Assembly: GCF_024679245.1 (NCBI RefSeq)
Contig: NC_090188.1
Span: 32,830,624 to 32,894,623, forward strand
Length of the DNA stretch: 64,000 nt
Direction of reading: 5' to 3'
Source of the DNA: Pseudorasbora parva
Taxonomy: Eukaryota > Chordata > Actinopteri > Cypriniformes > Gobionidae
Shown: piece by piece, positions 33,992 through 60,108 of the stretch
Layout of the letters: every line of letters starts with the position of its first letter
Numbering within the stretch: the first letter of the stretch is position 1
Position numbers and translations under genes: made by a program
Notes under the pieces: generated by a model
The model's input: the letters and a program-made list of their open reading frames with translations, nothing else
Database searches by the model: none
Told to the model about the DNA's origin: nothing

Positions 33992-35131
33992 CAACCCAGT
34001 CTCCTGCTACTGCGTATCTATACCACGAGTTTGCAATTTCATTTGGCGTAGTATTTACACGCCAAAGTCACATTTGGCGTATGTATGGTACGCGACACCC
34101 TCCCGTTAAACTTCCATTGATTGACAATGCGTATGTATTGCACGCAGATATTTATTATAGTCAATGTCATCATCATCATCGTCCCGCCCCTTCAATCGGA
34201 CGAAGATTCACGATTTCATCTCGTGCATGTGCCGAAGCAGCATGCAGAAATATTGATTTAGAATACTTATTTCGAATTATTATTATTATTATTATTATTA
34301 TTATTATTATTATTATTATTATTATTTTTATTTTTACAGAAACGTATTGTATATAACTTACTCAATCATTATCTCGAGTGGGGACGAATGTTGCCACTAC
34401 ATCTATAGCGCAACTGAGGATCATAATAATTTGAGGTTTTTTTTACAGTGTAATTCTAAACAATCCCCGACGGGGAAAGAAAAATGCTTGCAGAAGCTTC
34501 ATTAATTCAATGTGAATAAATTATTGCTTGTTTACTTGTTCTATCTGCTTTTTTTTTTTAATGTTAAACGCGTTTTATTTGGTTGTGATTGTATTTGTAA
34601 TAATAAAACTATAAACAATAAATATATAAATAAACAAAGAAATAAAGCAATAAATATTCCTTTGCTGATTTAGGAACCACCCACTCCCGCTTGAAAACCA
34701 ATCAAAAGCATTTGTTTTAGCGCCATCATATCCCGCCCCCTCATTGTATGGTGCTCAAGTTCACCTCGTGCGACGTCATCATAGTCCAAGTCGTCAATCA
34801 TCAGAATACCGAGTAAGTAATTAGCAAAAACATATATATGTAATTATATATTTAAAAAGTATCAGTTATTGCTAACTCAAATTATTGTAAATACAATTAA
34901 TCGAACTTTTCTAAGTGAGCATGCTCATGTCGGCCTACAGTTGTCAGGCGGTTAATATCAGTTTAAAATAATTTCTCATTAAATGTTTTAGGGATAACAT
35001 TTAGTGAGGGTCAACTGTGCGCAACCATTACTTTTTATTGATGCATCATATGTTTTTTGGTTACGTTATGATGATGAGCTCACACTACTGTATGCCCATG
35101 CCAGGCATTACGTGTAGATCACAGATGTGTG
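33992..35131 (+). repeat. left terminal inverted repeat, 1,140 bp
   Basis: Reverse complement of 58980-60108. The differences I see by eye are an ATT microsatellite length change (34278-34326), a one-base homopolymer change near 34437, and a substitution near 35066 (TTACGTTATG here, TTACGTTTTG in the mirror). The subterminal zone holds three 8-mers: TTTGGCGT at 34042 and 34073, and its complement at 34060. They are candidate transposase sites. Farther in are a promoter-like segment and a GTAAGT donor. Confidence 0.95.
34690..34818 (+). promoter_or_regulatory. left TIR promoter and 5' exon donor (inferred)
   Basis: In order and pointing inward: CCAAT (34698-34702), a GC box CCCGCCCCC (34732-34740), a CRE-like GACGTCAT (34772-34779), then ACCGA followed by a consensus splice donor GTAAGT (34813-34818). 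No TATA box is evident. I infer a TATA-less promoter and a non-coding first exon ending at 34812, which could splice to the acceptor at 43051 just before the chromodomain-gene ATG. The BEL/Pao element now lies within that putative first intron. Confidence 0.55.
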
Positions 35132-35173
35132 GATTTACAGCCCTGCACAATAATCACATTCTTTTAGGGTGTT

Positions 35174-35534
35174 TGTTACGATTTAGTATATAGCTGGATT
35201 AATGTGCGCTGACCGCCACAGTGTTCTTGTCAGAGAACTCAGAGTCATTGACAGATGATAGCCTTTTAATGAATGCTTTGGCATCAACATAGATGGACAT
35301 GTGCAAGTTTTTTGTCCGTTACTCATGCAATGTCCTTAAAGTGTAAACAATCCAGCGAGCGAACTTTCTTCCCCGTCGGAATGGCGGATGCAGCTCTATA
35401 ACGCTACGCATATTCTCAGTGTATTAAATGAGCGCAAGCTCCGCAGCTGCGCATGTTGCGCAATAGTCTGTGACGTGCAGCGCTGATTCAGTGCGCCTCT
35501 CCGGTATTATGCTGAACATGGAGAATTCAGAACA
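35174..35534 (-). repeat. BEL/Pao 3' LTR, 361 bp
   Basis: Same sequence as the LTR at 41536. Preceded on the element's coding strand by the purine-rich tract GTGGGGGCGG (about 35535-35545), which probably primes plus-strand DNA synthesis. Confidence 0.93.
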
Positions 35535-35580
35535 GCCGCCCCCACATTTGAGCAGCAAATGTGTTGATTAGTAGAATTCT

Positions 35581-58400: not shown

Positions 58401-58893
58401 TTAAAAATACTATAGTATTTACTATAAAGTACTAGTATTTTTTAATGTGGGAAATATAAATCACAACTGGAAATAACAGCAAATTTAAACAATAACTGTC
58501 TCACCGAGGTTAGGAGCCTTTTTTTTTAATTTTTGTTTTATTGAGGGATTTTTTCGAAGCGACCTCACAACATTCCCATTTCTGTCCCTATGCCTCCATT
58601 TCACAGTTGTAGGATGTGGCTTCGCCCTCTTGGCTGGCTTTTTTTCTTCTTTCTAAAAAATAGTATATAGTATAAAATGCAAATAGTATATTGAACAGGT
58701 TTTAAAGTAGTTTATGCTTGCATTACATTAACAATACATTACCCTATATAACTATTCATTTGTAGTTTTCTTTAAAATTATTTAACATGGAAAAAAAAAA
58801 AAAAATTTAAGATAAAATTTCTAAAGTTACCTGTATCTGATCAAGAAACACATCTCCAAGCACAAGTGCTGCTTCTAAAGAGCCTGTGGACAT
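52455..58893 (-). CDS. KDZ/Zisupton-type transposase, 859 aa, 16 exons
   Basis: Coding exons in transcript order: 58893-58831, 58652-58505, 57908-57858, 56819-56439, 56235-56134, 56018-55786, 55706-55528, 55449-55359, 55260-54913, 54807-54690, 54582-54491, 53646-53532, 53405-53304, 53214-53047, 52933-52766, 52675-52455. All have GT-AG borders and total 2,580 nt in frame with the stop. A basic N-terminus (residues 22-70) is followed by a CxC-type cluster at 147-172 (CxxC-x8-CxxC-x6-CxxC). The KDZ core has SVDGNRKLYRF (Asp373), CRHGGLLKGLNMFRGE, FFCSDVACKYW (Asp490), HAKAHQWSC and AGLTIGEEVEQVN (Glu549/550), candidate acidic residues of the RNase H-like fold. A charged C-terminal region ends in an acidic tail (DETDSDEG). 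It should cut and rejoin the element's ends. The ATG directly follows a splice acceptor. Confidence 0.92.
53743..54438. mobile_element. foldback MITE in transposase intron
   Basis: AGGGTTAGTTCACCCCAAAATGAG on the left is mirrored by TTTTGGGTGAACTAACCCT on the right, with long complementary arms (TTCATCTTTAGAACACAAATTAAGATAT and its mirror). TTAA follows on the right; the left has TTAT. It lies between coding exons 11 and 12 without touching splice sites. Confidence 0.75.
56903..57752. mobile_element. foldback element in transposase intron 3
   Basis: GGTAATACTTTAAAATGCTGATCC on the left mirrors GGATCAGTTTTCTACAGTGTTAC on the right. Complementary arms extend over most of the element (ACTATTAACTAACAAGAAA-type blocks, CATAATTAATGTGAAT). 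It shares the GGTAACACTTTA end with 2553 and 27514 but with more divergence. Confidence 0.75.
58065..58440. repeat. inverted repeat of ACTATAGTA units in transposase intron 2
   Basis: AAATACTATAGTAACTTATAATAAATACTATAGT is mirrored near 58400-58440, with many ACTATAGT/ACTACAGTA units between. Foldback-like, no coding capacity. Confidence 0.6.
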
Positions 58894-58979
58894 TCTGCTT
58901 GAACAAAATGTAAAATAGGGGAAAATTACCTACTAAAAACAAGTTGGGCTAAGTCAGGTTTACAGTGAATTGATTAATT

Positions 58980-60108
58980 CACACATCTGTGATCTACACG
59001 TAATGCCTGGCATGGGCATACAGTAGTGTGAGCTCATCATCAAAACGTAACCAAAAAACATATGATGCATCAATAAAAAGTAATGGTTGCGCACAGTTGA
59101 CCCTCACTAAATGTTATCCCTAAAACATTTAATGAGAAATTATTTTAAACTGATATTAACCGCCTGACAACTGTAGGCCGACATGAGCATGCTCACTTAG
59201 AAAAGTTCGATTAATTGTATTTACAATAATTTGAGTTAGCAATAACTGATACTTTTTAAATATATAATTACATATATATGTTTTTGCTAATTACTTACTC
59301 GGTATTCTGATGATTGACGACTTGGACTATGATGACGTCGCACGAGGTGAACTTGAGCACCATACAATGAGGGGGCGGGATATGATGGCGCTAAAACAAA
59401 TGCTTTTGATTGGTTTTCAAGCGGGAGTGGGTGGTTCCTAAATCAGCAAAGGAATATTTATTGCTTTATTTCTTTGTTTATTTATATATTTATTGTTTAT
59501 AGTTTTATTATTACAAATACAATCACAACCAAATAAAACGCGTTTAACATTAAAAAAAAAAAGCAGATAGAACAAGTAAACAAGCAATAATTTATTCACA
59601 TTGAATTAATGAAGCTTCTGCAAGCATTTTTCTTTCCCCGTCGGGGATTGTTTAGAATTACACTGTAAAAAAAAACCTCAAATTATTATGATCCTCAGTT
59701 GCGCTATAGATGTAGTGGCAACATTCGTCCCCACTCGAGATAATGATTGAGTAAGTTATATACAATACGTTTCTGTAAAAATAAAAATAATAATAATAAT
59801 AATAATAATAATAATAATAATAATTCGAAATAAGTATTCTAAATCAATATTTCTGCATGCTGCTTCGGCACATGCACGAGATGAAATCGTGAATCTTCGT
59901 CCGATTGAAGGGGCGGGACGATGATGATGATGACATTGACTATAATAAATATCTGCGTGCAATACATACGCATTGTCAATCAATGGAAGTTTAACGGGAG
60001 GGTGTCGCGTACCATACATACGCCAAATGTGACTTTGGCGTGTAAATACTACGCCAAATGAAATTGCAAACTCGTGGTATAGATACGCAGTAGCAGGAGA
60101 CTGGGTTG
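58980..60108 (-). repeat. right terminal inverted repeat, 1,129 bp
   Basis: Mirror of 33992-35131. It ends only 86 bp upstream of the transposase ATG, so the transposase promoter must lie within or overlap it. The mirrored TTTGGCGT/ACGCCAAA 8-mers are at 60020, 60034 and 60051. Confidence 0.95.
59293..59413 (-). promoter_or_regulatory. right TIR promoter and 5' exon donor (inferred)
   Basis: The same elements mirrored: CCAAT complement at 59409-59413, GC box at 59371-59379, CRE-like site near 59332-59339, donor GTAAGT read from 59298 to 59293. A matching acceptor (TTGTTCAAGCAG) ends at 58895, one base before the transposase ATG. The predicted first intron is about 400 bp. Confidence 0.55.

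What the first reader, a model, noticed from the sequence alone, without database searches (positions are those of the whole stretch)
33992..60108. A complete, apparently intact KDZ/Zisupton transposon of 26 kb (19.4 kb without a nested retrotransposon)
Seen directly: inverted repeats of about 1.13 kb, an exact 8-bp duplication CTCTGGGG adjacent to CAACCC termini, and two multi-exon genes that assemble in frame. Known: KDZ (Kyakuja-Dileera-Zisupton) transposases carry Cys clusters and an RNase H-like core, and Zisupton elements occur in fish. Inference: near-identical TIRs plus an open transposase mean recent and possibly ongoing activity. Intact elements this large are uncommon among cut-and-paste transposons.
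Basis: partly seen in the sequence, partly recalled or inferred. Interest (0 to 1): 0.95.

Follow-up and report, generated by a model that had tools for sequence, protein, structure and literature searches.

The report
Two-gene 19-kb KDZ transposon in fish
A large jumping gene of the little-studied KDZ group sits complete in a fish genome that holds two near-identical copies of it elsewhere; besides the enzyme that moves it, it carries a second, conserved gene that looks built to bind chromatin.

Summary
TIRs of 1144 and 1133 nt differ by two substitutions; the TSD is an exact 8 bp; the 15-exon transposase is open, with CxC3 and KDZ domains. The same genome holds two more full-length copies on other contigs, each with a 7-8 bp TSD; the three differ pairwise at 0.36-0.53% of sites, and one insertion site has an unoccupied paralogue. 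The nested element is a BEL/Pao retrotransposon with identical LTRs, absent from both sister copies, one of which is 19,270 bp. New here: (1) a second open gene (399 aa; zinc-ribbon-like N-terminus, acidic linker, chromodomain-like C-terminus), whose relatives lie beside KDZ transposases in some other fishes; (2) its first coding exon lies inside the TIR, and the other TIR carries the same exon facing the transposase, in phase with it, so two convergent genes may each start in a TIR, as in maize MuDR. Transcription, the shared leader and chromatin targeting are inferred. Most KDZ loci found in this genome lack a detectable gene 2 nearby.

The parts
33984..33991 (.). Target site duplication, left copy CTCTGGGG
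33992..35135 (+). Left terminal inverted repeat, 1144 nt
34748..34812 (+). First coding exon of gene 2, inside the left TIR
   Evidence: P0121 residues 1-22; exact protein match of the spliced frame
35174..41897 (-). Nested BEL/Pao LTR retrotransposon in intron 1 of gene 2; identical 362-bp LTRs, 5-bp TSD GTGTT; absent from both sister copies
   Evidence: Pfam on five separate pieces; unoccupied site in the C21 and C1 copies
43052..47635 (+). Gene 2, exons 2-9: 43052-43136, 43223-43357, 44487-44649, 44812-45328, 45631-45686, 46518-46585, 47441-47484, 47569-47635; 399 aa with exon 1; zinc-ribbon-like N-terminus, chromodomain-like C-terminus
43509..44228 (.). Older interspersed repeat in a gene-2 intron (another copy at 16370-17045, 88.8%), present in all three full copies
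49775..51150 (+). Decayed LINE fragment (RVT_1; extent approximate, from broken frames), present in all three full copies
49944..50101 (.). 158-base stretch with 7-bp TSD CACAGGG inside the LINE fragment; in the window and C21 copies, absent from C1
52455..58894 (-). KDZ transposase gene, 15 exons: 58831-58893 (from 58894 if spliced from the TIR exon), 58505-58652, 56439-56819, 56134-56235, 55786-56018, 55528-55706, 55359-55449, 54913-55260, 54690-54807, 54491-54573, 53532-53646, 53304-53405, 53047-53214, 52766-52933, 52455-52675; 839 aa
   Evidence: CxC3 at aa 201-302 and KDZ at aa 352-565
59299..59363 (-). Same 65-nt exon in the right TIR, facing the transposase; splices in phase to 58894, giving 861 aa (inferred)
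58976..60108 (-). Right terminal inverted repeat, 1133 nt
60109..60116 (.). Target site duplication, right copy CTCTGGGG

Best explanation
An autonomous KDZ-superfamily transposon of about 19.3 kb that moves by DDE cut-and-paste. Shown: three collinear copies in one genome, each with long TIRs and a 7-8 bp TSD; open transposase frames in two of the three and open gene-2 frames in all three; a paralogous unoccupied site; a transposase that keeps the residues invariant in its family. Shown as annotation: the first coding exon of gene 2 lies in the TIR. Inferred: each TIR holds a promoter plus a leader exon that launches one of two convergent genes, so both proteins may share an N-terminus of about 22 residues. 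The transposase binds the TIRs, excises the element and inserts it with an 8-bp stagger. Gene 2 is a nuclear accessory protein whose zinc ribbon and chromodomain-like module connect the transposition complex to chromatin, for target choice or escape from silencing. Older LINE and MITE-like passengers ride along; the BEL element is a later, copy-specific insertion in an intron.
For: Domains: KDZ 4.6e-32, CxC3 1.5e-10. D376, D493 and E552/E553/E555 (P0001 numbering) invariant in 40 of 40 aligned family members chosen from the 120 listed. Copies: C1:62291682-62318136 and C21:34819563-34838832 are collinear with the window copy; TSD ATTTTAAA 8 of 8 at C21; at C1 ATGAGGC (7 bp), or GATGAGGC (8 bp) if the last G of the end counts. 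Unoccupied paralogue of the C1 site at C5:152459, 108 of 115 columns identical across the join with a single GATGAGGC. 128 of 19,040 aligned sites vary; pairwise 0.357%, 0.457%, 0.530%. C21: transposase 5 substitutions, no indel, no splice-site change; gene 2 three substitutions and an in-frame 6-nt insertion. Gene 2 C-terminus: 24 of 25 PDB hits at E<=1 are chromodomain proteins, best 1.1e-4; the 50 rows shown of 113 Foldseek matches are all chromodomains. A Gymnodraco KDZ protein begins with a gene-2-like zinc ribbon (two-sequence E 1e-5 and 1e-7).
Against: In this genome only 3 of 39 KDZ loci and 3 of 6 gene-2 loci lie within 20 kb of the other gene; about 10 kb beyond the last gene-2 exon of one C20 locus were read without finding a KDZ transposase. 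So gene 2 is an accessory of one or a few families, not a KDZ requirement. In Misgurnus and grass carp the best transposase and gene-2 entries lie on contigs of different length. On P0121, Pfam Chromo (0.034) and zinc ribbon (0.0043) are below curated cut-offs; of six gene-2 proteins scanned only P0125 passes, for the zinc ribbon. Foldseek E-values for the chromodomain are 0.11 or worse. The transposase model has no PDB match at E<=0.001, so an RNase H fold is not shown by fold search. The C1 transposase has a 1-nt deletion in exon 6. No transcript, binding or excision data. The splice from the right TIR to the transposase rests on phase and splice signals only (phase alone is a 1-in-3 chance); none of the 120 listed transposases starts with that peptide. 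The unoccupied-site search for the window copy did not complete.
Confidence: 0.86

Rival explanations
1. Gene 2 is captured cargo, a former host or retroelement gene with no part in transposition, kept because it is linked.
For: Three of six gene-2 loci in this genome stand apart from any KDZ match found. Most KDZ loci found lack it (36 of 39 within 20 kb). Chromodomains are common in Gypsy integrases (recalled), a possible donor.
Against: The pair recurs in Cypriniformes and Esociformes, and a zinc ribbon of this kind heads a KDZ protein of Gymnodraco. All three full copies keep the frame open, and its first exon lies inside the TIR.
Confidence: 0.25
2. The copies are not recent transposition products: their likeness reflects gene conversion or assembly duplication of an old element.
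For: TIRs vary less than the interior, 6 of 2224 sites against 122 of 16,816 (Fisher p 0.012), as conversion between TIRs would give. The element carries a decayed LINE fragment.
Against: Different flanks and TSDs at each copy, an unoccupied paralogous site, private substitutions in each copy (27, 41 and 60) and copy-specific insertions. The shared older repeats show that they were aboard before the copies spread.
Confidence: 0.07
3. The inverted repeats are a segmental inversion around unrelated genes.
For: None beyond the existence of long inverted repeats.
Against: Exact TSD, identical ends at three loci and one shared gene content.
Confidence: 0.01

Closest known systems
Zisupton of fishes (Boehne et al., MBE; not held; known here through citing papers)
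   Same: Multi-exon KDZ transposon in fish (PMC9297572 passages), 8-bp TSD (PMC12730594 passages)
   Different: Zisupton proteins are described as up to 1400 aa (PMC9297572 passages), here 839-861 aa with CxC3. From recall, the original is about 11 kb with one gene; here 19.3 kb, 1.1-kb TIRs and two genes. No sequence comparison with it was made.
KDZ1 of Cryptococcus
   Same: KDZ catalytic core with a cysteine cluster, TIRs, 8-bp TSD, shown to move (PMC12810828 passages)
   Different: About 11 kb, 241-bp TIRs, CxC1 rather than CxC3; the passages seen name no chromodomain gene
TET/JBP-carrying Kyakuja, Dileera and Zisupton of fungi
   Same: KDZ elements carrying an extra chromatin-related gene (PMC12730594 passages)
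   Different: Their extra gene is a TET/JBP dioxygenase; Pfam shows no such domain in the two spliced proteins here. The Kyakuja families characterised there have 7-bp TSDs and no TIRs.
MuDR of maize
   Same: Two convergent genes, transposase plus a protein of unknown function, with promoters in the TIRs (PMC3440606 passages)
   Different: Unrelated transposase family (recalled), ~215-bp TIRs, and the passages seen mention no coding exon in the TIR

Membership tests
KDZ superfamily | PF18758 transposase domain | tested here: met
   4.6e-32, 111.9 bits against cut-off 26.6
KDZ superfamily | Associated cysteine cluster | tested here: met
   CxC3 PF18804 1.5e-10, 41.3 bits against cut-off 26.6
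KDZ superfamily | Conserved acidic catalytic residues | tested here: met
   D376, D493, E552/E553/E555 invariant in 40 of 40; the assignment as catalytic triad is inferred
KDZ superfamily | RNase H-like fold | tested here: inconclusive
   Order of strands and helices around the triad fits in the AF2 model of P0001, pLDDT 72; Foldseek gives no PDB match at E<=0.001
KDZ superfamily | TIRs and 8-bp TSD (Zisupton, Dileera) | tested here: met
   Two of three full copies have exact 8-bp TSDs; C1 has 7 bp, or 8 with a one-base shift
Zisupton branch | Position in a tree with reference Zisupton | not tested
   No reference Zisupton, Dileera or Kyakuja sequence was in hand
Kyakuja branch | 7-bp TSD, CA..TG ends, no TIRs | tested here: not met
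   Ends are CA..TG, but there are 1.1-kb TIRs and two of three TSDs are 8 bp; criteria from PMC12730594
MuDR-like architecture (analogy only) | Convergent genes launched from TIRs | tested here: inconclusive
   Gene orientation and the TIR exon of gene 2 shown; promoter activity not testable here
BEL/Pao (nested element) | Pao peptidase, RT, integrase, LTRs, short TSD | tested here: met
   Peptidase_A17 1.3e-48, RVT_1 1.8e-8, Integrase_H2C2 3.4e-8, DUF5641 3.2e-26 on separate pieces; rve 4e-5, below its cut-off; the two pieces from the gag end have no hit; LTRs and 5-bp TSD
Chromodomain protein (gene 2) | Chromo fold with aromatic cage | tested here: inconclusive
   CBX7 1.1e-4, all 50 Foldseek rows shown; Pfam below cut-off. 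By alignment two of three cage positions are aromatic (F or Y, and W), the third is not; cage positions recalled

The most novel reading that the evidence does not exclude
Teleost KDZ elements include a distinct two-gene class in which one promoter-plus-leader exon, duplicated in both long TIRs, gives transposase and a zinc-ribbon/chromodomain helper the same N-terminal peptide, and the helper steers insertion by reading histone marks: a DNA-transposon counterpart of chromodomain-guided retrotransposons.
Probability: 0.25. Interest if true: 0.72.

Novelty: new variant of a known kind. Interest (0 to 1): 0.5.

Why it matters
KDZ elements shown to move, in what I read here, are fungal. A vertebrate family with near-identical copies, a defined boundary, open frames and a conserved second gene would give a testable autonomous system. 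It would also let one ask whether DNA transposons evolved chromatin-reading helpers as some retrotransposons did, and whether long TIRs can serve as shared promoter and first exon for two genes.

Tried and rejected
Rejected: a MITE relative at 12368-12507 (only 8-mers match; the sequence in between is a different repeat). Most of the 29 exact 13-mer ends: eight carry 90 or more bases of TIR (three pairs, C13:12287526 and C13:12302111), C18:1632867 carries 25, and the reversed control had 104 hits, so the other 20 are taken as chance (the two window ends were not refetched). My first gene-2 model (365 aa) had a wrong last exon and lacked the first and the final two; replaced. The gene-2 comparison used wrong exon boundaries, so its stop calls are void; one search replaces it. 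The missing part of exon 11 in the C1 copy is an artefact of where two fetched pieces meet. Fold search of the transposase model gave mainly helical-bundle noise. The 7.15-kb insert in the C1 copy matches no protein gathered here at E<=1e-3. Paper searches: Kyakuja with chromodomain 0; Pseudorasbora with genome assembly and transposable elements 0; 'KDZ transposase' 3, listing only.
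Full report
Where it lies. The window is G000:C17:32830624-32894623 of a 1.2287-Gb assembly in 79 contigs. I therefore take the species to be P. parva (an inference).

The element. The TIRs differ by two substitutions and by 13 gap columns, mostly a microsatellite length change. The transposase is on the minus strand in 15 exons, all introns GT-AG, 839 aa, with CxC3 at 201-302 and KDZ at 352-565. The homologue search scored 7994 candidates (those sharing most words) and found 160 proteins at E<=0.001; 120 are listed, all carry PF18758; 117 have a source name, by which all are fishes, and three have none. 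Best full-length relative: Misgurnus, 85% over 100%; grass carp 96% over 86%. In 40 aligned members the residues D376, D493, E552, E553 and E555 (P0001 numbering) are invariant. The AF2 model of P0001 (pLDDT 72) has strands and helices in an order that fits an RNase H-like core, but Foldseek found nothing at E<=0.001 in the PDB, so the fold is not independently shown.

Other copies. An exact search for the 13-base end found 29 places, most of them chance (reversed control 104). Three pairs delimit full copies: C17 (this window), C1:62291682-62318136 (26,455 bp) and C21:34819563-34838832 (19,270 bp). TSDs: CTCTGGGG at C17, ATTTTAAA at C21, and at C1 ATGAGGC (7 bp) or GATGAGGC (8 bp) depending on one base at the end. 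A 32-base subterminal TIR pattern with up to three mismatches finds 10 places and none in its control: the same six ends, two on C13 and two on C22. The C13:12287526 copy is truncated: right TIR to window position 51597, with a 5.1-kb insert, holding a long LINE-like frame, inside its TIR. The C22 pieces are TIR fragments. The full copies are collinear. On 19,040 sites aligned in all three, 128 vary: 60 private to C1, 41 to C21, 27 to C17; pairwise divergence is 0.357, 0.457 and 0.530%. Relative to the window, the C21 transposase has five substitutions (four change a residue) and no indel; the C1 transposase has seven substitutions and a 1-nt deletion in exon 6; gene 2 is open in all three. 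These counts rest on exact or near-exact ends, so older or diverged copies would be missed.

Order of events. The decayed LINE fragment (about 49775-51150) and an older repeat (43509-44228) are in all three full copies, so they were aboard before the copies spread. A 158-base stretch inside the LINE, with a 7-bp TSD, is in C17 and C21 but not in C1, which makes C17 and C21 sisters and shows the element moving with its passengers. The BEL/Pao element, with identical LTRs and TSD GTGTT, is only in C17; the site is unoccupied in C21 and C1. C1 has instead a 7.15-kb insert with its own 1.05-kb TIRs (98.7%), ends CAACACAGTCTCACC and a 7-bp TSD ACAATAT; it matches none of the proteins gathered here, so it may be a non-autonomous relative. 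TIRs vary less than the interior, 6 of 2224 against 122 of 16,816 (p 0.012), which suggests TIR-TIR homogenisation or constraint and warns against using TIR identity as a clock.

Unoccupied site. The C1 flanks joined with one TSD copy match C5:152459 onward across the join, 108 of 115 columns, with GATGAGGC once. A second, poorer match on C16 (73 of 84) is also unoccupied. The same test for the window copy did not complete.

Gene 2. It has nine exons; the first (34748-34812) lies inside the left TIR. The right TIR carries the same exon, facing the transposase; joined to the acceptor before 58894 it gives an open 861-aa frame. None of the 120 listed transposases starts with this peptide, so for the transposase the splice is a prediction. 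The profile search scored 7987 candidates and found 44 proteins at E<=0.001, a few of them with short or doubtful matches (for example P0156, a C-type lectin domain protein, 13% coverage). They come from Cypriniformes, Esociformes (Umbra) and, by names recalled as gadiform and notothenioid, cod-like and Antarctic fishes; three have no name. The N-terminus carries five conserved cysteines, including two CxxC pairs; Pfam zinc-ribbon scores are weak and pass the cut-off for one of six proteins scanned, P0125. The C-terminus resembles chromodomains by sequence (24 of 25 PDB hits, best 1.1e-4) and by predicted structure (all 50 rows shown of 113, best E 0.11; model mean pLDDT only 51, but 77-82 in the blocks over residues 341-380). 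Many of the 25 aligned gene-2 proteins lack this C-terminal part.

Is gene 2 part of the KDZ system? For: adjacent or near-adjacent locus tags on contigs of equal length in Cirrhinus, Umbra and Anabarilius, equal contig length in Onychostoma and in Culter (there 60 tag numbers apart), and a Gymnodraco protein that joins a gene-2-like zinc ribbon to a KDZ transposase. Against: in Misgurnus and grass carp the best entries of the two genes are on contigs of different length, though each entry shows only one contig. In this genome 77 KDZ matches form 39 loci, of which 3 have gene 2 within 20 kb; of 6 gene-2 loci, the three on C20 have their nearest KDZ match 1.5 Mb, 221 kb and 30 kb away. For one of these, 20 kb downstream were read: no KDZ transposase, only a 43-residue match to the end of P0101, a protein that also has a second domain, PF13358. 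Diverged partners may be missed by these queries, and counts are lower bounds. I read gene 2 as an accessory gene of some fish KDZ families.

Mechanism. Cut-and-paste by a DDE-type transposase follows from the TSDs, TIRs, conserved acidic residues and unoccupied site, and from a fungal KDZ element that moves with 8-bp TSDs (PMC12810828, passages). Launching two convergent genes from TIRs is known in MuDR (PMC3440606, passages); here it is inferred from the exon. The role of gene 2 as a chromatin tether is a hypothesis from its domains; known cases of extra chromatin-related genes in KDZ elements are the fungal TET/JBP carriers (PMC12730594, passages).

Novelty. The superfamily is known, in fishes too (PMC7599744, passages). 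Eight paper searches were made in the held library; in the listings and passages that I saw, no KDZ element with a chromodomain-like second gene or a TIR-borne first exon appears. The original Zisupton paper is not held, so this is not a claim that it is unpublished.

Noticed in passing
window 61400-62734: Large minisatellite, period 38 (about 34 copies) or 19, G+T-rich, starting 1.3 kb outside the right TSD.
   Followed up: partly
G000:C1:62298744-62305897 (L036/L037): A 7.15-kb element with 1.05-kb TIRs (98.7%), ends CAACACAGTCTCACC and 7-bp TSD, nested inside the C1 copy; its ends resemble those of the host element, but no KDZ or gene-2 match.
   Followed up: partly
G000, 39 loci: The genome holds at least 39 loci matching the KDZ catalytic exons, including groups with equally scoring copies (for example C1:5503639, C9:40992191, C17:15557889), so KDZ elements may be thriving in this species.
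   Followed up: no
G000:C13:12288266-12293367 (L040): A 5.1-kb insert with a long LINE-like open frame (1086 codons; called LINE-like by eye) sits in the TIR of the truncated C13 copy, next to the start codon of the TIR exon; TIR fragments on C22 end within a base or two of the same place and are also followed by a T-run.
   Followed up: partly
P0139, P0140, P0143, P0145, P0151: Several gene-2 proteins from different fishes read the chromodomain exons in another frame (CPRHVK and the like), as if an alternative splice form were recurrent.
   Followed up: no
P0002 (grass carp): The transposase is 96% identical over 86% of its length to one in grass carp, a different cypriniform lineage; strong constraint or horizontal transfer would explain it, not tested.
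   Followed up: no
window 33992-35135 and 58976-60108: TIRs show about a third of the divergence of the interior between copies (6 of 2224 against 122 of 16,816 sites).
   Followed up: partly
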